Below are positions 29,304 through 39,743 of a DNA stretch of 64,000 nt, one piece after another. Source of the DNA: Yersinia rochesterensis (lineage in GTDB: Bacteria; Pseudomonadota; Gammaproteobacteria; Enterobacterales; Enterobacteriaceae). The translations under genes and the position numbers were made by a program. Numbering within the stretch: the stretch's first letter is position 1; the number at the start of each line of letters is the position of its first letter. Under the pieces are notes generated by a model. The model did no database searches. It was given only the letters and a program-made list of their open reading frames with translations, and was not told the origin of the DNA. The stretch covers positions 3,410,001 through 3,474,000 of the forward strand of contig NZ_CP032482.1 in assembly GCF_003600645.1 (NCBI RefSeq), written 5' to 3'.

Positions 29304-29460
29304 ATAACTATACACGTTTGTATGTGGATTCCCGTGAGCAACAATAGCCGTCAAGAGACAACAACAGTGGCCTAGACCTTGTGTAAGTATCCCCTCAAAA
29401 CGGCCCATTCACTTTTAGAGATCTTCCGACATACTGATTATGTCATCTGAGGAGATCACT

Positions 29461-29727
29461 ATGCGTAAGATCCGATTCACCGAGCACCAGATCATCGCCG
29501 TACTGAAATCAGTCGAAGCGGGTAGGACCGTCAAAGATGTGTGCCGTGAGGCTGCTATTTCCGAAGCCAGCTACTACAACTGGAAGGCGAAATATGGCGG
29601 AATGGAAGCCGCTGATATCAAAAAAATCAAAGATCTTGAAGACGAGAATCGTCGTCTGAAGCAGATGTTTGCCGATCTGAGTCTGGAATGCCGGGCGCTG
29701 AAAGACGTCATCGAAAAAAAGCTTTAA
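29461..29727 (+). CDS. IS3-family transposase OrfA
   Basis: Helix-turn-helix part of the transposase, MRKIRFTEHQIIAVLKSVEA then VKDVCREAAISEASYYNWKA, with a leucine zipper toward the end (IKDLEDENRRLKQMFADLSL). ATG 29461 fits the family start; an ATG at 29440 is also open. A run of seven A plus G (AAAAAAAG, 29714-29721) just before the stop is the likely slippage site for the OrfAB fusion. Confidence 0.9.
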   Translation: MRKIRFTEHQIIAVLKSVEAGRTVKDVCREAAISEASYYNWKAKYGGMEAADIKKIKDLEDENRRLKQMFADLSLECRALKDVIEKKL

Positions 29728-30572
29728 AACCAGCGATAAAGCGTGAGCTCGTCAACTATTTGACCGCGCAGTTTACGATGAGCGTACGCCAGGCATGCAG
29801 GACGTTATCGCTGAGCAGGACGGTGTTTCGTTACCAACCGGATACGCGACGTGATGAACCGGTGATCCAAATGCTGACAGAGGTGGCCGAGCGCTATCCC
29901 CGCTACGGTTTTAAGAAGCTTTTTCAGGTGCTTCGCAGGCAGGGGCACGTCTGGAATCACAAGCGCGTACACCGGATTTACTGTCTGTTAAAACTGAATT
30001 TTCGTCGTAAGGGTAAACAACGCCTGCCGGTGCGCAATCCGGCTCCGCTGGCAACGCCGGAAGCCCTGAACCAAAGTTGGTCGATTGATTTTATGCACGA
30101 CGCGCTGACATGTGGCCGACGTTTTCGGACCTTCAATGTCGTCGATGATTTTAACCGTGAAGCTCTGGCTATCGAAATTGACCTAAATATCCCGGCACAG
30201 CGTGTCGTCCGAGTGCTGGACAGGATAGTAGCAAACCGTGGATATCCGCTGAAGATGCGGATGGATAATGGGCCAGAACTGATATCACTGGCTCTGGCGC
30301 AATGGGCCGAAGAGCATGGCGTGATGCTGGAATTTATCAAGCCGGGCAAACCGACGCAAAACGCATTTATCGAACGGTTTAACAGGACGTACCGGACAGA
30401 AATACTGGATTTTTACCTGTTTAGAACGTTGAACGAAGCACGGGAAATTACGGAACGTTGGCTGAATGAATATAACAGTGAGCGGCCCCATGAATCCCTG
30501 AATAACCTGACACCGGAAGAATACCGGCTGATGGCTGAAAACCCGGAAATCTCAAAAAGTGCGTGGAACTAA
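29688..30572 (+). CDS. IS3-family transposase OrfB (DDE integrase core)
   Basis: Catalytic part of the transposase, expressed mainly as a -1 frameshift product with OrfA. The N-terminal HTH_21-like region (SVRQACRTLSLSRTVFRYQP) and RYPRYGFKKLFQVLRRQG precede the rve core. The DDE residues are in QSWSIDFMHD, MRMDNGPELIS and TQNAFIERFNRTYR. It ends LNNLTPEEYRLM. All catalytic residues are present, so the element may be active. Confidence 0.92.
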   Translation: MPGAERRHRKKALKPAIKRELVNYLTAQFTMSVRQACRTLSLSRTVFRYQPDTRRDEPVIQMLTEVAERYPRYGFKKLFQVLRRQGHVWNHKRVHRIYCLLKLNFRRKGKQRLPVRNPAPLATPEALNQSWSIDFMHDALTCGRRFRTFNVVDDFNREALAIEIDLNIPAQRVVRVLDRIVANRGYPLKMRMDNGPELISLALAQWAEEHGVMLEFIKPGKPTQNAFIERFNRTYRTEILDFYLFRTLNEAREITERWLNEYNSERPHESLNNLTPEEYRLMAENPEISKSAWN

Positions 30573-30588
30573 AGCTGGGATACTTACA

Positions 30589-30705
30589 GTCATCAGTCTC
30601 AATAGTGAATGTCCTTGTGGTAACATCCAAAATATTTGTATTTTGGATCGCAACAGACTGTTTCATAGTGATCGTTTCACTATAATTCATAATGTATGGC
30701 TTCAT
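30589..30705 (-). pseudogene. Candidate graspetide precursor peptide, 3' end cut by the IS
   Basis: From ATG 30705 (AGGGG 9 bases upstream, 23 bp after the membrane-protein stop) the minus strand encodes 39 residues before the IS end at 30588. They begin MKPYIMNYSE and finish DVTTRTFTIETDD. The last stretch is rich in Thr and acidic residues with spacing T-x-x-T-x-x-x-E-x-x-D, like graspetide cores, which are joined by Thr/Lys to Asp/Glu side-chain links. After the IS junction the frame runs on for 46 residues of unrelated IS sequence. It belongs to the ATP-grasp cluster by position. The precursor role is an inference. Confidence 0.45.
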
Positions 30706-30728
30706 ACTATCTAACCCCTATTATGTTG

Positions 30729-31571
30729 TCATACTAACGGCTGAAAATTAAGTTTTGTTGTATTGACAAAATTATAATAAATTTCTGCATGGAAATATTT
30801 TTCAGACTCATGCCAACCGAAGTTGGATATAAAAAACACACAAACCCAAGTGACAATACATATGGAAATTAGTCGATAAAGATACTTTTCAATATTTTTT
30901 ACCAAACTAGCGATATATCTGACGGCATCTTTTATATCATACCAATCCCTATAAAAAGAAATTGCCAATGCTGCTTTATTGGGATCTTTTTTTAGATCAC
31001 CAAAGCTAGATTGATAAAATGAACTAATGGCAATAGAGGAAATAATAAATAATGCTAAATTTAATGCATAAAGTGATGAAACCCCCCATAAAGTATAGAG
31101 AATCCATGTCATTACCATCGGAGCATTAGAATTGATAATTTCACCTAACAGATACCCAAGAAAACCAAGTAGTGCTAAACCGATAGTGGAGTAGAAAGAT
31201 ACTTTGTTATGTAGTGAGTAGAGTGCCCCCGTAAGCTCCGTAATACGGATTTTTAAAAATTCCTCTTGCCGCTCCCTTTCTTGGTCAGAGATACCGGTTA
31301 TATGTTCCTTATAAACAGCAACTTTTTCCTCAATCTCACTTGGTTTTACCCGGCTTTGGACCTGATCAAAAGAAAGTTTTTTGTAGCAATCCACATGATA
31401 TGAATCATCCTTTTTATACAGAGTAAAAAGATAAAAAATAGATTTTCCCCAAGGTAGCGAGAACAGAGAATAACGAGCAGTATCAAGGTCGTTATAGGTT
31501 CCAAAATTTTGATCGTTGGAAATATGAAAAAATGGTAGATAATTGAATATCAATAAAAATTTACTCATCAT
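30729..31571 (-). CDS. Membrane protein of unknown function next to the ATP-grasp gene
   Basis: A 280-residue protein that I do not recognise. The first 120 residues are soluble and include a charged helix (SDQERERQEEFLKIRITELT). Transmembrane helices follow at about 125-146 (YSTIGLALLGFLGYLLGEII), 153-186 (WILYTLWGVSSLYALNLALF; IISSIAISSFY) and 230-252 (LISICIVTWVCVFFISNFGW). Its start overlaps the ATP-grasp gene by 11 bp (ATGATGAGTAA), so it is translationally coupled. It may export, sense or give protection from the product of that enzyme, but nothing in its sequence shows this. Confidence 0.6.
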   Translation of the reverse strand: MMSKFLLIFNYLPFFHISNDQNFGTYNDLDTARYSLFSLPWGKSIFYLFTLYKKDDSYHVDCYKKLSFDQVQSRVKPSEIEEKVAVYKEHITGISDQERERQEEFLKIRITELTGALYSLHNKVSFYSTIGLALLGFLGYLLGEIINSNAPMVMTWILYTLWGVSSLYALNLALFIISSIAISSFYQSSFGDLKKDPNKAALAISFYRDWYDIKDAVRYIASLVKNIEKYLYRLISICIVTWVCVFFISNFGWHESEKYFHAEIYYNFVNTTKLNFQPLV

Positions 31572-32478
31572 TCAAGTAGTCCACTATAGCTTTAGAAATA
31601 ATCATACCCGTCTCAAACTCAAGCCATGCCCATTGACCGTTTGCATTCATTTCAAGGAAATACCAAGTACCTTGATTAATAATGAAGTCAAAACAACCAA
31701 AATTAATATTATTTTCGGACATGAATTTCAGGCATTTATTATATATATCCTCTGGAAGTTCAAAAATTTCATAACTCACATTATTGTTTTTCTTGCGCCA
31801 GTCTATTTTGTTTTCTGATTCAATTTTTACTGAAAATACCTGTTCAGATACAAATGTCGCCCGAACTTCATAATCTTTACTAATATATTTTTGAAAATAT
31901 GCTGGAGAGTATTTCAAACTATCGTTATTGATATTAAGATTATACTCGTTAGTCTGAACATATTCCTTTTTATTATCATAAGAGACTGATCCTATTGATA
32001 AAGGTTTAACAATTGCCTTGTGTTCTTCTAAAGCAGAAATTGCTAAATTATCATTAGTAATGACTAAATCAGGAATAATAAAACCAACACGTTGTGCTAA
32101 ATAAGCCTGAAGAATTTTATTGTCAGCTCTGCGCATGACCGATGGCTTAGATAAACATCGGCCAGAAAAACTCTCAACGATGCCTTCAATAAGCGAATGG
32201 CTTTCTTTGTGAGAAAAGGCTTGATACTGGGCGTCAATCACACCAGTAAGATCTTCAGATGCAGGTTTACGGTAGTAAATTGATTTACAGTTAGCTGAAT
32301 TTACTTCATCACCAGAACTATCTTTGATTCTAAACCCTGATAAATCGTAACTAATTCTATAGTTTGAAAAGTTATCTGTATTTAAACGGAAGAAAGCAAT
32401 GTCTTTGTATCGTGCCATGATGTAGTCACATGTGCGATCAAAGCTGCTGGTGATGATCAGTATCCGGTTTTTCATCAT
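31561..32478 (-). CDS. ATP-grasp peptide ligase, MvdD/graspetide-maturase-like
   Basis: A 305-residue ATP-grasp enzyme. The N-terminal third has the pre-ATP-grasp fold and the motif SIYYRKPASED, which corresponds to the W-x-R-R-P-like element of graspetide ligases. The ATP-grasp core runs from about 120 to 300 (RRADNKILQAYLAQRVGFII; KAIVKPLSIGSVSYD; FQKYISKDYEVRATFV). It closes with GTWYFLEMNANGQWAWLE, very close to the E-x-N-x-x-G-Q-W-x-W-x-E motif of MvdC/MvdD. These enzymes join acidic side chains to Thr/Ser or Lys in a ribosomal peptide. It is first in a coupled set with the membrane protein and short peptide gene. Confidence 0.75.
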   Translation of the reverse strand: MMKNRILIITSSFDRTCDYIMARYKDIAFFRLNTDNFSNYRISYDLSGFRIKDSSGDEVNSANCKSIYYRKPASEDLTGVIDAQYQAFSHKESHSLIEGIVESFSGRCLSKPSVMRRADNKILQAYLAQRVGFIIPDLVITNDNLAISALEEHKAIVKPLSIGSVSYDNKKEYVQTNEYNLNINNDSLKYSPAYFQKYISKDYEVRATFVSEQVFSVKIESENKIDWRKKNNNVSYEIFELPEDIYNKCLKFMSENNINFGCFDFIINQGTWYFLEMNANGQWAWLEFETGMIISKAIVDYLNDE

Positions 32479-32692
32479 ATCCCTGATTGCAAAGAAGCAT
32501 TTTCTAAATGATATGTAAAAAACTAAAATTAGCCAATGACAGTGGTAACAGTTTTGACGACCGACTTTAAATATTTGACTCTATTTTGTTGTCTATTTCT
32601 TCTAACAGAAAATCGATACTTACCCAGTAGACATACCAACCGCTAACTTCCGGTATTAATAATATTATATAGAGGCGTTTTTACTTTCTGTC

Positions 32693-33055
32693 TCACAAAA
32701 TCATCTGTGCCGGCCGGCATTTATAAATTGCTGCTAATTTCTCTCTGGTCTTCTTCTGGGGACGAGAATCCACGGCTTCCCATTGAGATACAGCAGATTG
32801 GGTGGTGCCAAGCAGTTCTGCTATTTCATATTGAGAAAAACCACGGTAGATACGCCATGCAGCCAGCAAACTGACACCATCGTTTACCATGATTTGAACA
32901 ACTTCATTCGGGATGGTCTGATCATCATCGTTATCAGCAACATAGGGAATATCCTCATACTTCGCATTAGAGATAAGCTGCTGATATTCGGCAATGGGTA
33001 AGACCACAAACTGAGGCTTTCCTGCTTCATCATGAATGTATTGTAGTTTTGCCAT
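32693..33055 (-). CDS. HTH antitoxin of a RelE-type toxin-antitoxin pair
   Basis: A 120-residue protein with an N-terminal stretch of antitoxin type (MAKLQYIHDEAGKPQFVVLP) and a C-terminal Xre-type helix-turn-helix (FSQYEIAELLGTTQSAVSQW). ATG 33055, after AAGGTGA, is preferred to ATG 33088. It lies 62 bp downstream of the toxin gene, an order (toxin first) seen in HigBA-like modules. It should bind and inhibit the toxin and repress the pair. Confidence 0.8.
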   Translation of the reverse strand: MAKLQYIHDEAGKPQFVVLPIAEYQQLISNAKYEDIPYVADNDDDQTIPNEVVQIMVNDGVSLLAAWRIYRGFSQYEIAELLGTTQSAVSQWEAVDSRPQKKTREKLAAIYKCRPAQMIL

Positions 33056-33117
33056 CTTATTCACCTTAGTTGAGAAAAATAACGCCATGCCTTTGAGGGG
33101 AAATCTACTGAGCCAGC

Positions 33118-33378
33118 CTAATAGGTTGTTGTGGTTCTGCGTTTAACTTCCTGGATCGTACATATCACAGGGGTTCCCTCTATAATCTGAAAAATAATCC
33201 TGTAATTCCCCACTCGCATCCGATACTGGCCAGTACCCATCTGTAACTTTTTGATATCCAAATCAACAGCAGGGAAATTTGCCAGTTTATTCACTTTTTC
33301 ACTGATGGATTTTCGATATCTGACATCTATTGAAAGTAACTGCTTAACCGCTTTCCTCGACCAGTCAACCTTGACCAT
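33118..33378 (-). CDS. RelE/ParE-superfamily toxin
   Basis: An 86-residue RelE-fold toxin: VKVDWSRKAVKQLLSIDVRY, KLQMGTGQYRMRVGNYRIIF and CTIQEVKRRTTTTY. The core R-x-x-x-G-N-Y-R-I-I-F motif of ribosome-dependent or gyrase-targeting toxins is clear. ATG 33378 with GAGGAAA upstream is preferred over ATG 33423. It forms a pair with the HTH antitoxin downstream. Confidence 0.82.
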   Translation of the reverse strand: MVKVDWSRKAVKQLLSIDVRYRKSISEKVNKLANFPAVDLDIKKLQMGTGQYRMRVGNYRIIFQIIEGTPVICTIQEVKRRTTTTY

Positions 33379-33750
33379 CGTTTCCTCACTTTTATAAGTG
33401 ATCACATCCGCTGTTATGGTCAAATAGTAGAGCTATATGTAAGCATGGTCAACACAAAAACTGATTATTGGCTAATTTTAATCTTATTAAAAGCTAATAT
33501 TTGAGTCTAAATAATAATTAATATTGATGAATTACATACGCATTACACCCACAAATGCGGCCCCTCTCGCATCTACAAAAATGTTTGTCCTAATTTACCA
33601 CTGGTTAATTGAACAGTAGGGAATGGCCGGATATAGTGCCCCCGCAGCGGCAAATTCCGCTGCCGTGATTAGCGTCCCGGAATTCAATAGAGCGCACGAC
33701 CGCACAGGCGGTTACTATGTGCGGGTACAGTTACACCTGTGAAAAGCAAT

Positions 33751-33830
33751 GGTGGGCTGGACGGGGGCATCGAAAGATGCGCCGGGTTCTCTGTTGACCG
33801 GTTACGCTAACCTCGTTCAGCTCACCACCC
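33751..33830 (+). ncRNA. C4 antisense RNA-like element, copy A
   Basis: An 80-nt element opening GGTGGGCTGGACGGGGGC and closing with CACCACC, so its ends can pair. A GCATCGAAAGATGC hairpin lies inside. GCTAACCTC (33806-33814) is fully complementary to GAGGTTAGC (33835-33843), and CACCACC (33823-33829) to GGTGGTG (33851-33857), just ahead of the downstream ORFs. This is the layout of the C4 RNA of phages P1/P7 and P4, which controls icd/ant translation and termination. Confidence 0.65.
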
Positions 33831-33889
33831 TCTTGAGGTTAGCGTCTCTTGGTGGTGATTTTAAAACCATCAACTGAGAGGTTGTCATC

Positions 33890-33988
33890 ATGGATTCGAC
33901 GACTAAAGCCCCTTGCCGTACCGCTTTTCTTCACCTGCCAACATCACTAGCCGCCACTCTCCCGCCGGAGGTGCGCCATGTACGATAA
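33890..33988 (+). CDS. Short leader ORF upstream of the Icd-type ORF, copy A
   Basis: A 32-residue ORF, MDSTTKAPCRTAFLHLPTSL..., starting 33 bp after the C4-complementary segment and overlapping the next ORF by 11 bp in another frame. Overlapping short ORFs at this place are typical for the P1 icd/ant region. It is conserved in copy B, where only a few residues differ, which supports translation. Confidence 0.5.
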   Translation: MDSTTKAPCRTAFLHLPTSLAATLPPEVRHVR

Positions 33989-34163
33989 CTCGCCCCGCGA
34001 AGTGGAAGACCTGATTGATCATTGCCGTGCGCTCATTTACGCCGTTGTCGTGCTTGATCAACCCGCTGCAAAAGAAATACTCAATCTCGTCCTATGGCAG
34101 CAAATGGACCTGCTACATCAAACTTATCATCAAGCTATCAGTGAGCCTCTCGAGGCCGAATAA
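33978..34163 (+). CDS. Small P4-island protein (Icd-like region), copy A
   Basis: A 61-residue helical protein, MYDNSPREVEDLIDHCRALI followed by DQPAAKEILNLVLWQQMD. It overlaps the leader ORF and is followed by a terminator. By its position after a C4-like RNA it may correspond to the cell-division-inhibitor/regulator ORFs of P1/P4-type elements. The sequence itself does not show a function. Confidence 0.6.
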   Translation: MYDNSPREVEDLIDHCRALIYAVVVLDQPAAKEILNLVLWQQMDLLHQTYHQAISEPLEAE

Positions 34164-34292: not shown

Positions 34293-34628
34293 ATGGATTT
34301 TTTGCAGTTTATTGAAACGCCGTTTTTTTCCAAACAACGGGATATCTTGCTAACCGAAGATGAGTTCAGAGAATTTCAGCAAGTTTTGTTATTAAACCCA
34401 TCTTCGGGTGCATTAATTGTGGGGACTGGCGGCGTACGAAAGGTAAGATTTGCTATTGGCCAGAAAGGGAAAAGTGGTGGAGTCCGCGTTATTTATTACT
34501 ATCAGGAACCGCAAGGCAGGATATGGCTTTTTACTGTCTACCCAAAAAATCAAGAAGATACGCTGACGAGTAGCGAGAAACAGCAATTCAAAGATGTGAT
34601 AATACAAATCAAAGGGAGTACGGCATGA
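34293..34628 (+). CDS. RelE/HigB-type toxin
   Basis: A 111-residue RelE-superfamily toxin of the HigB-2 type: RDILLTEDEFREFQQVLLLN, GTGGVRKVRFAIGQKGKSGG and VRVIYYYQEPQGRIWLFTVY with YPKNQEDTLT after it. It overlaps the antitoxin gene by 4 bp (ATGA). This is the second toxin-antitoxin pair within 2 kb. Confidence 0.85.
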   Translation: MDFLQFIETPFFSKQRDILLTEDEFREFQQVLLLNPSSGALIVGTGGVRKVRFAIGQKGKSGGVRVIYYYQEPQGRIWLFTVYPKNQEDTLTSSEKQQFKDVIIQIKGSTA

Positions 34629-34912
34629 GTGATTTTTTCAATGATTTAATGACATCCGCGAAGCAGGCTGTAGCTATTAGTCATGATGAATTAAAAGCGG
34701 GCAGAGTTACAGAAATTCCCATCCCCGATGTGAAAGAAATTAGAAAGAAAACAGGGTATAAGCAAAAAGATTTTGCAAACCTTGTGGGAGTGAGTCCTTC
34801 ATTGGTTGAAGCATGGGAGCAACATAGAAGAATTCCATCAGGTAGTTCACTTAAGCTATTGATAATGATTGATCGGCACCCCTCCCTAATTAACGAACTT
34901 TCAGGAATTTAG
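34625..34912 (+). CDS. NadS/HigA-type HTH antitoxin
   Basis: A 95-residue Xre-family antitoxin. An N-terminal helical part (MSDFFNDLMTSAKQAVAISH) is followed by the helix-turn-helix KQKDFANLVGVSPSLVEAWE. It pairs with the overlapping toxin gene upstream; this order is the usual HigBA one. Confidence 0.85.
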   Translation: MSDFFNDLMTSAKQAVAISHDELKAGRVTEIPIPDVKEIRKKTGYKQKDFANLVGVSPSLVEAWEQHRRIPSGSSLKLLIMIDRHPSLINELSGI

Positions 34913-36207: not shown

Positions 36208-37317
36208 TCAAAAATAGCGAGAGAATTTATTCTCATCATCGCTCATTAAATTAATTAAATTATAATTAACAAAGAGCTTTTCTTTTCCTGAGTGAATTTC
36301 ATGCAATATATTTATTTCACACAACTTCTTTAAATAGTTTGATGCTGTCTGCCTTTTTGCGATCCCATTACTCACTAAATTTTGTATTCTACAGTAGGGT
36401 TGCTCGAAAATACACTGCAATAATTCATAGCTATAAATATCGTTAATTTCATTTTTCATATGTAATGACGTATGTTCCATTAGTTCACGAATTGCATTTA
36501 TTTTTTCTAACGTCCATTTTGATGTATTCTCAATCGCAGACAGTATAAATAAAATCCATGATTCCCAATCACCATCTTTTGTTACTTTCAATAATAAGGA
36601 GTAATAACTATTTTTATTTTTAATAATGTATCGACTCAAATAAAGAATAGGTAAGGTGATTAGATTTTTATCTATTAAAAACAATAAATTAATGACTCTC
36701 CCTGTGCGACCATTTCCATCAGAAAACGGATGGATAGCTTCAAATTGATAATGTGTAACTGCTAATTTAACTAAAGGATCAAGATCATCCTCTTGATGGA
36801 TAAATTTCTCCCAATCTGAAAGTAATTCTATAATATTTCTCTCTCCAACTGGAGGTGTATAAATGGTCTCACCAGTAGCTTGGTTTTTTAATGCTGTCCC
36901 TGGAATTTTCCTGATCTCCATTTTTGAGTTTTTGATCGTATTACAAACCTTTAATGCCGTATTTACACATAGCGGTCTATCTTTTAATTCTTGATAACCT
37001 TCATAAAGTGCAGTCCTATATCTTAATGCTTCCTTTGTCATAGGATCAGCATTACTGTCCTCACTGGAATACTGGAATAACTTATCAGTAGTTGTCACAA
37101 TATTTTCTATCTCAGAACTATCTTTAGCTTCTAAAATAGGAATTAGATTAATGAGAAGGTTCTGATTCGGTAATAACTCGCCCGCCCGTTTTAATCCTTC
37201 AAGTGCAGTTCTCGCTTCAACGCATGCTTTTAGTACACGCTTAGTCTCAATTTCTTGTTTTGGCGGCAATCGTGGCAGGTCATTATACGGTTGTGTAGGG
37301 TTCCATATCATGTTCAT
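36208..37317 (-). CDS. Fic-domain AMPylase, class II (N-terminal inhibitory helix)
   Basis: A 369-residue Fic protein. The active site HPFSDGNGRTGRVINLL at about 205-221 is complete: His, the Asp/Asn-Gly-Asn anion site and both Arg. It lies near FEAIHP. An inhibitory motif S-x-x-x-E-N (SSEIENI, about residues 67-73) in the N-terminal helix marks a class II, self-inhibited enzyme. The C-terminal ~80 residues form a winged helix (IAKRQTASNYLKKLCEINIL). Such proteins attach AMP to target hydroxyls. Palindromic repeats upstream suggest autoregulation by the C-terminal domain. Confidence 0.88.
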   Translation of the reverse strand: MNMIWNPTQPYNDLPRLPPKQEIETKRVLKACVEARTALEGLKRAGELLPNQNLLINLIPILEAKDSSEIENIVTTTDKLFQYSSEDSNADPMTKEALRYRTALYEGYQELKDRPLCVNTALKVCNTIKNSKMEIRKIPGTALKNQATGETIYTPPVGERNIIELLSDWEKFIHQEDDLDPLVKLAVTHYQFEAIHPFSDGNGRTGRVINLLFLIDKNLITLPILYLSRYIIKNKNSYYSLLLKVTKDGDWESWILFILSAIENTSKWTLEKINAIRELMEHTSLHMKNEINDIYSYELLQCIFEQPYCRIQNLVSNGIAKRQTASNYLKKLCEINILHEIHSGKEKLFVNYNLINLMSDDENKFSRYF

Positions 37318-37550: not shown

Positions 37551-37798
37551 ATAAAGTGGCTGTTTTACTGAAACAAAAACTCAATGATCAATTCCCCCCA
37601 CAAATGCGGCCCCTCTCGCATCTACAAAAATGTTTGTCCTAATTTACCACTGGTTAATTGAACAGTAGAGAATGGCCGGATATAGTGCCCTCGCAGCGGC
37701 AAAATCCGTTGCTGGGTTTAGCAGCCTGAGACAAAACAGAGCGCACAACCGCGCAGGCGGTTACTATGTGCGGGTACAGTACACCTGTGAAAAACAAT

Positions 37799-37877
37799 GG
37801 TGGGCTGGACGGGGGCATCGAAAGATGCGCCGGGTTCTCTGTTGACCGGTCTGCTAACCCCGTTCAGTCCACCACCC
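37799..37877 (+). ncRNA. C4 antisense RNA-like element, copy B
   Basis: Nearly identical to copy A in the GGTGGGCTGGACGGGGGC region. The pairing segment differs (GCTAACCCC), and so does its partner (GGGATTAG at 37880-37887), keeping most base pairs. CACCACC and GGTGGTG are kept. Parallel change in both partners supports a real RNA-RNA interaction. Confidence 0.6.
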
Positions 37878-37934
37878 AAAGGGATTAGGAGCTCTTGGTG
37901 GTGGGATAAAGCCATCAACTGAGAGGTTGTCATC

Positions 37935-38033
37935 ATGGATTCGACGACTAAAGCCCCTTGCCGTACCGCTTTTCTTCACCTGCCAGCATCACTGGCCTCC
38001 ACTCTCCGGTCGGAGGTGCGCCATGTACGATAA
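37935..38033 (+). CDS. Short leader ORF, copy B
   Basis: A 32-residue ORF corresponding to 33890-33988, with the same first 17 residues (MDSTTKAPCRTAFLHLP) and a few changes later. It overlaps the start of the broken small ORF by 11 bp. Confidence 0.45.
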   Translation: MDSTTKAPCRTAFLHLPASLASTLRSEVRHVR

Positions 38034-38208
38034 CTCGCCCCGCGAAGTGGAAGACCTGATTGATCATTGCCGTGCGCTCATTTACGCCGTTGTCGTGCTT
38101 GATCAACCCGCTGCAAAAGAAATACTCAATCTCGTCCTATGGTAGCAAATAGACCTGCTACATCAAACTTATCATCAAACCACCAGCGAGCCTCTCGAGG
38201 CTGAATAA
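38023..38208 (+). pseudogene. Small Icd-region ORF, copy B, nonsense mutated
   Basis: Counterpart of the 61-residue ORF in copy A. It is identical for the first 40 residues, then CAG has become TAG at 38143-38145, where copy A reads Leu-Trp-Gln-Gln. The frame after the stop still codes the same tail to a TAA at 38206-38208. A 40-residue product could be made. Confidence 0.85.
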
Positions 38209-38289: not shown

Positions 38290-39504
38290 TTATGCCCGTT
38301 TCCCAAACCTACCATGAATCACATTCTCGCCATTTTCCAGACTATCCATATAGTCGGCATACCATTGCAGCATTTCTCTGCGACCATCCAGATATTGAGC
38401 GTGATTATAGGTACCGCGAATACTGTTTTTATCGACGTGAGCCAGTTGTGTTTCTATCCAGGCCGTATTGAAACCCTGCTCATGCAAAATAGTGCTCATT
38501 GTGTGGCGAAAACCGTGGCCGGTGGCTCTGCCGCCATAACCGATACGTCGGATTAGTACATTGAGTGTCATCTCACTGATAGGCTTGCTGTGCTGTATTC
38601 TGCCGGGGAACACAAACTGATAGCGCCCGCTGATAGGTTGAATCTGCTTTAGTATCGTAATGGCTTGATCCGGAATCGGCACCATATGTGGCCGACGCAT
38701 CTTCATTCGCACCGCGGGGACCTCCCATAAGGCATTATCAAAATCAAACTCTGCCCATTCGGCCTGCCGCAATTCACCTGGGCGGGTACCGGTGAGGATC
38801 AACAACCGCATAGCCAACTTAACCAACATGCTGCCGCTATAACTGGCAAGGCTGGAAAGAAATTCAGGGATTTCATTAATCGTAAGATGTGGATAGTGTT
38901 CGCGTTTATGAGGAGCAAAAGCACTGGCAAGGTCAGGGGCGGGATTATATTCGGCTCGGCCAGTGATGATGGCGTATTTCCAAACCTCACCACATCGCTG
39001 CCGAACCTTACGCATTTTCTCAGTGGCACCCCGTTTTTCTAACTTGGACAGCACGGCCATTAGCTCAAGTGGTTTAATTTCTTTGATTGGCCGGTAACCG
39101 ATATATGGAAAAACATCTCTTTCAAACGTGCTCATCATTTCTAAACGATAGGATTCAGACCATCTATCATAACGCCGCTGATACCACTCTCGGGTGATAG
39201 CTTCAAAGGTATTCGTCGCTTCACCTTGTCGGGCTAGTTTTTCCTGTTGTTTGTTCTGGCTGGGATCACCGCCACCAGCGACAATCTTCTTAGCCTCGTC
39301 ACGTTTTACTCTGGCAACCGCTAACGACACGTCTGGATACACCCCCACGGCCAACAACTTCTCTTTCCCCGCAAAGCGGTACTTTAAACGCCAATAACGC
39401 GAGCCATTGGTATTGACTAATAAGTACAAACCGCCCCCATCCGCGAGCTTATAGGCTTTGTCTTTGGGTTTGGCTGTTTCAACCTGCCGGGCGTTTAGCT
39501 TCAT
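38290..39504 (-). CDS. P4-type tyrosine integrase
   Basis: About 404 residues. The N-terminal DUF4102 domain (MKLNARQVETAKPKDKAYKL, GLYLLVNTNGSRYWRLKYRF) is followed by the core-binding domain and the catalytic domain with RLLILTGTRPGELRQAEWAE (Arg), TGHGFRHTMSTILHEQGFN (His-x-x-Arg), LAHV and the Tyr in RGTYNHAQYL. ATG 39504 is preferred over 39531 because it matches the family start. It lies 165 bp from the 3' end of tRNA-Gly in the same direction, the usual place for integrases that use a tRNA 3' end as attB. It defines the right end of the island. Confidence 0.94.
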   Translation of the reverse strand: MKLNARQVETAKPKDKAYKLADGGGLYLLVNTNGSRYWRLKYRFAGKEKLLAVGVYPDVSLAVARVKRDEAKKIVAGGGDPSQNKQQEKLARQGEATNTFEAITREWYQRRYDRWSESYRLEMMSTFERDVFPYIGYRPIKEIKPLELMAVLSKLEKRGATEKMRKVRQRCGEVWKYAIITGRAEYNPAPDLASAFAPHKREHYPHLTINEIPEFLSSLASYSGSMLVKLAMRLLILTGTRPGELRQAEWAEFDFDNALWEVPAVRMKMRRPHMVPIPDQAITILKQIQPISGRYQFVFPGRIQHSKPISEMTLNVLIRRIGYGGRATGHGFRHTMSTILHEQGFNTAWIETQLAHVDKNSIRGTYNHAQYLDGRREMLQWYADYMDSLENGENVIHGRFGKRA

Positions 39505-39669
39505 CTGGGGGTACCTTTTAGGTGGGTACAATTTGATACCCCCATATATACCCCCCGCTATAAGTAGATTTCAATAGACGAACATGTATATAGGAATAAC
39601 TAGATTAGCCTGAGAAGTGCAGATTTACTGGGTTTTATGGACTTCGGGAGATACTGCGAGACGTTAAGT

Positions 39670-39743
39670 TGGAGCGGGTGAAGGGAATCGAACCCTCGTA
39701 TAGAGCTTGGGAAGCTCTCGTTCTACCATTGAACTACACCCGC
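39670..39743 (-). tRNA. glyU: tRNA-Gly (anticodon CCC), island attachment site
   Basis: A 74-nt cloverleaf on the minus strand: acceptor GCGGGTG pairing with CACCCGC plus T and CCA, D arm GTTC AATGGTA GAAC, anticodon stem AGAGC / GCTCT with loop TTCCCAA (anticodon CCC), and T arm AGGGT TCGATTC CCTTC. It is almost the E. coli glyU sequence as I remember it. The integrase gene starts just beyond its 3' end, so this end should be the att core. Confidence 0.95.

What the first reader, a model, noticed from the sequence alone, without database searches (positions are those of the whole stretch)
30589..32478. Candidate graspetide (ATP-grasp RiPP) locus with precursor cut in its core by an IS
Seen: three minus-strand genes are packed together. 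They are an ATP-grasp enzyme with FLEMNANGQWAWLE and YYRKP motifs, a coupled membrane protein (11-bp overlap), and a short ORF with its own ribosome site 23 bp on. The ORF ends TTRTFTIETDD exactly at the IS terminus. Known: MvdC/MvdD-like ligases join Thr/Lys to Asp/Glu side chains in short peptides whose cores repeat Thr and acidic residues. Inferred: the short ORF is the precursor, and the spacing T-x-x-T-x-x-x-E-x-x-D is the start of its core. The gene order (ligase, membrane protein, precursor) and the membrane partner are unusual. I know of no described Yersinia graspetide.
Basis: partly seen in the sequence, partly recalled or inferred. Interest (0 to 1): 0.82.

Follow-up and report, generated by a model that had tools for sequence, protein, structure and literature searches.

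The report
Mobile graspetide cassette, broken in Yersinia
A three-gene, horizontally moving cassette that very probably makes a ring-stapled repeat peptide is present but broken in this Yersinia; intact relatives sit on prophages, phage satellites and genomic islands, several of them beside anti-phage defence genes, so it is a testable candidate defence or warfare trait.

Summary
The window carries an MvdC/MvdD-type ATP-grasp ligase, an overlapping membrane protein and a short ORF ending at an IS. In 14 of 14 related loci with both flanks held, the order ligase - membrane gene - short ORF recurs. There the short ORF is an intact 112-140 aa precursor with an invariant leader (MKPYxMxYS) and 4-6 units of T-x-x-T-x-x-x-E-x-x-D, far above shuffled expectation and under purifying selection. 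The window copy keeps only the first unit; the rest was not found anywhere in the genome and the IS sits at a deletion junction, so the locus is almost certainly dead here. A wider family with precursor, ligase and probably homologous membrane protein occurs in phages and plasmids of other classes. The core fits multi-core, thuringinin-like graspetides, so the kind is known. Product and function are unproven; defence and secreted inhibitor both remain open. Verdict: new variant of a known kind.

The parts
31561..32478 (-). ATP-grasp ligase (graspetide synthetase), 305 aa
   Evidence: PF21068 2.9e-9 above cutoff; TIGR04187 5.8e-57, TIGR04185 4.9e-46, TIGR04184 6.3e-44, below curated cutoffs; profile matches CdnC 7mgv 3.4e-41 and MdnC 5ig9 3.7e-38; NGQWAW motif invariant across distant relatives
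30729..31571 (-). Membrane partner, 280 aa: N-terminal beta domain, then three long helices with predicted TM segments near residues 124-146, 164-182, 234-252
   Evidence: No hit above cutoff in Pfam, NCBIfam, PADLOC, PHROGs; AlphaFold2 pLDDT 83.7; hydropathy; directly follows the ligase in 14 of 14 loci with both flanks (reading frame broken in L015)
30589..30705 (-). 5' remnant of the precursor gene: leader MKPYIMNYSET... and the first core unit TTRTFTIETDD; the rest is missing
   Evidence: Aligned to 12 intact precursors; L014 matches the window only to 30590; rest not found in own genome
30715..30719 (-). AGGGG ribosome-binding site of the short ORF
   Evidence: read from sequence
29382..30588 (+). 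IS3-type insertion sequence (two overlapping transposase ORFs 29440-29727 and 29688-30572), terminal repeat TGTAAGTATCCC, no target duplication seen; sits at a deletion junction
   Evidence: family name from recall of the ORF layout, not from a family scan
32508..32536 (-). Promoter-like TTGGCT-17-TATCAT ahead of the ligase (weak; 7 such sites found in the region against 11.0 expected by shuffling)
33542..34161 (+). First copy of a P4-like immunity module (isrK 33644-33718, C4 antisense RNA 33745-33832), repeated at 37591-38206
   Evidence: Rfam, direct repeats 89-99%
36208..37317 (-). SoFic-type Fic protein (listed as a defence system) on the same element
   Evidence: PDLC03963 4.7e-120; Fic domains
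38290..39531 (-). Tyrosine integrase next to tRNA-Gly
   Evidence: phrog_1 4.2e-72
39670..39743 (-). tRNA-Gly(CCC), likely integration site
   Evidence: L010 joins 39627 to 29381 almost directly

Best explanation
The locus is a mobile graspetide cassette. Working model: the leader MKPYxMxYS of a 112-140 aa precursor docks on the ATP-grasp ligase, as PFFARFL does in microviridins. The ligase then links Thr hydroxyls to Glu/Asp carboxyls in each 18-22 residue unit T-x-x-T-x-x-x-E-x-x-D-x-D, giving a string of 4-6 small double-ring domains. The peptide works together with the dedicated three-helix inner-membrane protein (export, anchoring or effector). Shown by sequence: the enzyme family, the conserved three-gene linkage, the conserved leader and repeats, the selection for the peptide sequence, and mobility. 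Inferred: the ester links, two per unit, leader docking, membrane topology and joint action. For biological role I favour an accessory trait of mobile elements against phages or rival elements (about 45%), ahead of a secreted protease inhibitor or bacteriocin-like peptide (about 35%). In this Yersinia the cassette is inactivated because the precursor gene ends after its first core unit.
For: Enzyme. Linkage in the same order in 14 of 14 loci with both flanks (L003-L009, L011, L012, L014-L017, L030; L009, L011 and L016 are one near-identical type). Repeats: 4-6 units in 12 of 12 precursors against shuffle means of 0.01-0.05 and a maximum of 2 in 2000 shuffles; of 20 invariant core columns 19 are T, E or D. 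Precursor dN/dS 0.10-0.25 in 5 of 6 pairs, sixth saturated. Membrane partner probably homologous to that of other multi-core ATP-grasp loci: hhalign probability 89, P 2.2e-6, against a best of 0.6 in 30 block-shuffled controls. Mobility: prophage site between Q-like antiterminator and endolysin in L017; tail genes beside L015; integrase beside E. coli copies; tRNA-Gly and integrase in the window. Defence neighbours: with control 141.
Against: No product has been seen; ring topology is inferred from related families. NCBIfam scores are below curated cutoffs. No leader protease, GG site or transporter gene was seen next to the three genes, so how a mature peptide would be released is unexplained. 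The membrane protein has no fold match. The role is only guilt by association: by locus the defence signal is 4 of 7 against 1 of 7 control regions (one-sided p 0.13), by protein at least 12 of 39 against at least 2 of 68 (p 8e-5, but proteins within a locus are not independent). The commonest E. coli type (91 of 5426 genomes) has conjugation and pilus genes, not known defence genes, next to it.
Confidence: 0.88

Rival explanations
1. Secreted multivalent protease inhibitor or bacteriocin-like peptide: the membrane protein exports or gives immunity to the peptide, and mobile elements carry it as they carry colicins. The chemistry is as in the best explanation.
For: PMC8939145 states that all graspetides characterised at that time are protease inhibitors (passage) and suggests that its membrane-protein cluster 18, specific for thuringinin loci, transports the peptide (section 7). 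The E. coli island copies lie by conjugation and pilus genes.
Against: No secretion ATPase, peptidase or GG cleavage site was seen in the cassette; three TM segments with most conserved residues outside the membrane look little like a transporter; several loci lie among defence genes.
Confidence: 0.35
2. Anti-phage abortive system: the cross-linked peptide keeps the membrane protein in check or arms it, and phage attack on the peptide, ligase or host triggers membrane damage. This is the functional half of my preferred reading taken as a separate claim.
For: 6 of 12 distinct loci have a PADLOC-recognised defence protein (E <= 1e-40) in the held flank: L003, L006, L007, L009 type, L014, L030; the window element carries SoFic; prophage site between Q and lysis genes; repeated decay (window; L010; L015; E. 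coli MB98) fits a costly trait.
Against: No member of the cassette is in PADLOC-DB 2023 (0 hits for the three window proteins at E <= 1). Flanks of L012, L015 and L017 were only partly scanned. Co-location on islands is shared by many non-defence genes.
Confidence: 0.42
3. The ligase modifies a cell protein, like RimK with ribosomal protein S6, and the short ORF is an unrelated small protein.
For: A weak RimK-family match (TIGR00768 1.1e-10); one relative on a plasmid is annotated rimK_1; phrog_2599 match 7.3e-12.
Against: Graspetide models score far better; the precursor repeat pattern, leader and linkage are conserved in all 14 loci.
Confidence: 0.03

Closest known systems
Thuringinin and related multi-core graspetides (clusters 13 and 18 of PMC8939145)
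   Same: One ligase; precursor with tandem repeats built from Thr, Glu and Asp; an uncharacterised membrane protein specific to these loci and no known transporter (sections 5 and 7 read). The exact thuringinin motif T-x-x-T-x-x-x-E-x-x-D-x-D is recalled, not found in a held text. L056, a viral contig with a recombinase gene, has the window's gene order and similar repeats.
   Different: Leader MKPYxMxYS; ligase - membrane gene - precursor order; gammaproteobacterial; prophage, satellite and defence-island setting. No thuringinin sequence was available here, so direct homology of precursors or of cluster 18 was not tested.
Precursor - ligase - membrane loci with core T-x-T-x(4)-E-x-D-D (L032 Leptospira phage, L033 gut phage scaffold, L034-L037 plasmids, L048-L050 viral contigs)
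   Same: Ligase about 29-34% identical to the window's by tblastn for L032-L037; multi-unit precursor; three-TM membrane protein probably homologous to the window's.
   Different: Precursor gene first; spacing T-x-T instead of T-x-x-T; membrane protein lacks the N-terminal beta domain in most (my reading).
Microviridins, chryseoviridin (MdnC/MvdC/MvdD, CdnC)
   Same: Homologous ATP-grasp enzyme; leader with a P-h-h-x-x-h stretch like PFFARFL (motif from PMC8939145 section 5; fit judged by eye).
   Different: No Lys-containing cage core, no second ligase, no acetyltransferase or ABC transporter seen beside the genes.
Graspetide groups 34/35 of the 2026 RODEO survey (PMC13097080)
   Same: Described as often having long precursors with repeating motifs; group 34 also has extra proteins without Pfam/TIGRFAM match (section 7).
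   Different: Group membership and taxa are in the supplement, which could not be read; the present family may or may not be group 34.

Membership tests
Graspetides (ATP-grasp RiPPs) | ATP-grasp ligase of the MvdC/MvdD/GRASP type | tested here: met
   PF21068 above cutoff; TIGR04187/04185/04184 strong but below their equivalog/subfamily cutoffs; CdnC, MdnC profile matches
Graspetides (ATP-grasp RiPPs) | Linked short precursor with conserved leader and core rich in Thr/Ser (or Lys) and Asp/Glu | tested here: met
   12 of 12 aligned precursors, 27 invariant columns; 4-6 motif units each. The window copy itself keeps only the leader and first unit
Graspetides (ATP-grasp RiPPs) | Side-chain ester or amide links installed in the product | not testable with these tools
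   needs mass spectrometry
Graspetides (ATP-grasp RiPPs) | Leader motif P-h-h-x(1,2)-h | tested here: inconclusive
   PYIMNY fits by eye; the paper finds the motif in only about half of precursors
Thuringinin-like multi-core graspetides | Several core repeats of Thr, Glu, Asp modified by one ligase | tested here: met
   single ligase in each locus; modification itself untested
Thuringinin-like multi-core graspetides | Dedicated uncharacterised membrane protein (cluster 18) | tested here: inconclusive
   A membrane protein is always present and is probably homologous to that of other multi-core loci, but no cluster 18 sequence was at hand; a profile search listed no Bacillus protein
Thuringinin-like multi-core graspetides | Sequence homology of precursor to thuringinin | tested here: inconclusive
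   Profile search with 12 precursors gave 40 proteins; the names shown are enterobacterial, none Bacillus; the search needs shared exact words
Known anti-phage defence systems (PADLOC-DB 2023) | Match of a component to a known or candidate defence model | tested here: not met
   0 hits at E <= 1 for ligase, membrane protein and short ORF
Known anti-phage defence systems (PADLOC-DB 2023) | Residence in defence islands | tested here: inconclusive
   6 of 12 distinct loci with a close defence gene; control comparison suggestive by protein, not significant by locus

The most novel reading that the evidence does not exclude
A graspetide-based immune system of mobile elements: a multivalent cross-linked peptide and a dedicated three-helix membrane effector guard prophages, satellites and islands against competing phages, with related versions in Leptospira and gut phages.
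Probability: 0.35. Interest if true: 0.88.

Novelty: new variant of a known kind. Interest (0 to 1): 0.62.

Why it matters
Roles of most graspetides in nature are unknown, and those characterised by 2022 were reported as protease inhibitors. A conserved, self-contained three-gene graspetide cassette that moves on prophages, satellites and islands in E. coli, Kluyvera, Vibrionaceae relatives and Yersinia makes the question directly testable in ordinary laboratory E. coli. If it acts on phages it would tie peptide cross-linking chemistry to bacterial immunity; if not, it is still an unstudied peptide family in enterobacteria with a membrane partner of unknown mechanism.

Full report
Observation. 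All stated features are in the sequence: ligase 31561-32478(-), membrane gene 30729-31571(-) with 11 bp overlap, a 23 bp gap, an AGGGG site and ATG 30705, and an ORF that reads 39 codons to the IS terminus. The IS spans 29382-30588 between two TGTAAGTATCCC ends. The window lies in a 4.45 Mb genome. I take the host to be a Yersinia because Yersinia records share the flanks and cassette at 95-98% identity.

Enzyme. The ligase matches the MvdD pre-ATP-grasp domain above its cutoff and the graspetide ligase models TIGR04187, TIGR04185, TIGR04184 at 5.8e-57 to 6.3e-44, below their curated cutoffs. A profile of nine relatives matches CdnC (7mgv, 3.4e-41) and MdnC (5ig9, 3.7e-38) in the PDB (the name MdnC for 5IG9 is from a passage of PMC7823629). 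So it is a graspetide-type ligase outside the named subfamilies.

Relatives. The genome scan gave nine loci: seven complete ones in Marinomonas, Photobacterium, two Aliivibrio, Shewanella, Brenneria and Kluyvera, plus two from other Yersinia, one cut by the contig end (L002) and one whose ligase is cut after residue 151 by another IS (L010). E. coli holds two types; the L012 type occurs in 91 of 5426 genomes at 99% identity or more. In 14 of 14 loci with both flanks held, ligase, membrane gene and precursor follow in that order; in L015 the membrane frame is broken by a stop. L009, L011 and L016 are one near-identical type, so there are 12 distinct loci.

Precursor. Twelve intact precursors, 112-140 aa, align with 27 invariant columns: seven in the leader M1 K2 P3 Y4 M6 Y8 S9 and twenty in the core, of which nineteen are T, E or D. 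T-x-x-T-x-x-x-E-x-x-D occurs 4-6 times in each, spaced mostly 18-22 residues, against means of 0.01-0.05 in 2000 shuffles with a maximum of 2. Precursor dN/dS is 0.10-0.25 in five of six pairs, the sixth being saturated, so the sequence is translated and selected. A profile search found 40 proteins, among them sequences named from Yersinia rochesterensis, Citrobacter, Klebsiella, Salmonella, E. coli and Rouxiella. The leader's PYIMNY fits the P-h-h-x(1,2)-h motif reported for graspetide leaders (PMC8939145 section 5), by eye.

State of the window copy. L014 matches the window at 98.3% but stops at 30590; the DNA on the other side of the IS matches the integration-site side of L010 instead; and the missing precursor DNA gave no match in the window's genome (without a positive control genome). 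No target duplication is visible. So the IS marks a deletion, and the precursor is reduced to leader plus one unit. Other damaged copies: L010 (ligase), L015 (membrane frame), and an E. coli genome with IS1 at the membrane gene (L029). Intact copies exist in close relatives (L014, L031).

Membrane partner. It has no family match above a cutoff. The model of the window protein (pLDDT 83.7) has an N-terminal four-stranded sheet and three long helices; hydropathy puts three TM segments near 124-146, 164-182 and 234-252, with a mostly positive loop between the second and third, suggesting a cytoplasmic N-terminus (in a few relatives fewer segments pass the threshold). No solved structure matches convincingly.

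Wider family. Two phage records found by the ligase, Leptospira phage LalZ_80412 and a human-gut phage scaffold, each have a repeat precursor, a ligase and a three-TM protein. Four of eight fetched plasmid records and four of nine further viral contigs do too, one of the latter being the Leptospira phage again. Their core is T-x-T-x(4)-E-x-D-D and the precursor comes first. Profile comparison relates their membrane proteins to the window's: probability 89, P 2.2e-6 over 143 columns, against at most 0.6 in 30 block-shuffled and 0.1 in reversed controls. L056, a viral contig with a recombinase gene, has the window's own gene order and a precursor with five E-x-S-D units, three with the strict T-x-x-T spacing by eye. 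PMC8939145 describes repeat precursors of this sort (cluster 13, with thuringinin) and a membrane protein cluster 18 specific to thuringinin loci, proposed as a transporter (sections 5 and 7). The exact thuringinin motif is recalled by me; no thuringinin sequence was compared. PMC13097080 mentions groups 34 and 35 with long repeat precursors (section 7); its supplement could not be read.

Setting. The window element has an integrase by tRNA-Gly, two copies of an isrK/C4 module typical of P4-like elements (the P4 label is recalled), a primase fragment, and a SoFic defence gene. In L031 the precursor lies beside a phage-type primase. In prophage L017 the cassette lies between a Q-like antiterminator and the endolysin, in opposite orientation. 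PADLOC neighbours at E <= 1e-40: type IV restriction-like helicases (L003), BREX PglZ/BrxL with PDC-S39 and a DUF262 protein (L006), Hachiman HamA/HamB and type I-F Cas proteins (L007), SIR2-HerA (L009 type), AbiEii (L014), Gabija and a type II restriction-modification pair (L030): 6 of 12 distinct loci. L004 had only weak helicase matches, L005 only an exonuclease I-like match (5.1e-58, read as housekeeping), L008 none among those scanned; L012, L015 and L017 were scanned in part. Control: among L003-L009, at least 12 of 39 neighbouring proteins match, not counting the exonuclease; among 68 proteins of seven regions from the same genomes the listed families are type I methyltransferase, specificity and Mad models, read as two proteins, with four families not shown. 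One-sided p is 8e-5, or 0.0045 if each unseen family were another protein; by locus 4 of 7 against 1 of 7, p 0.13. Ten chromosomal proteins of the window gave one weak match. So the defence link is suggestive, not established. That E. [quoted passage not shown]

Mechanism and verdict. The best-supported account is a leader-guided ligase that staples each repeat by Thr-to-Glu/Asp ester links, with the peptide acting together with its own membrane partner; only the sequence-level parts are shown. I rate the graspetide cassette reading at 0.88, the role against phages or rival elements at about 0.45 and a secreted inhibitor at about 0.35. Within the papers searched I found no description of a Yersinia graspetide or of a graspetide as prophage cargo or phage defence, but those searches cover only open-licence PMC texts. 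It is a new variant of a known kind.

Noticed in passing
L032 2185-4086 (Leptospira phage LalZ_80412); L033 1928-4605 (gut phage scaffold): Phages of other hosts carry their own precursor - ATP-grasp ligase - membrane protein loci, annotated as hypothetical or not at all.
   Followed up: partly
window 33542-34161 and 37591-38206: Two 84-99% alike copies, about 4.05 kb apart, of an isrK/C4 RNA module: tandem remnants of P4-like elements.
   Followed up: partly
window 29726-29868: Rfam isrN match (141.5 bits) lies inside the transposase gene of the IS, on the opposite strand; the family may simply mark this IS type.
   Followed up: no
window 32693-33423 and 34293-34912: Two toxin-antitoxin-like pairs (ParE-type with an HTH protein; RelE-type with an HTH protein) flank the cassette on its upstream side; the first pair is also beside the cassette in L002, L010 and L014.
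   Followed up: no
L030 3140-7453: A 1437 aa ATPase-like protein without PADLOC match lies between Gabija genes and the cassette; a possible further defence gene.
   Followed up: no
L003, L004, L005, L006, L007 membrane genes: Marine members carry about 80 extra C-terminal residues with a predicted alternating strand/helix fold (low confidence), absent from enterobacterial members.
   Followed up: partly
L017 5998-8107: Cassette at the Q-to-lysis accessory-gene site of a prophage, opposite to the late operon.
   Followed up: yes
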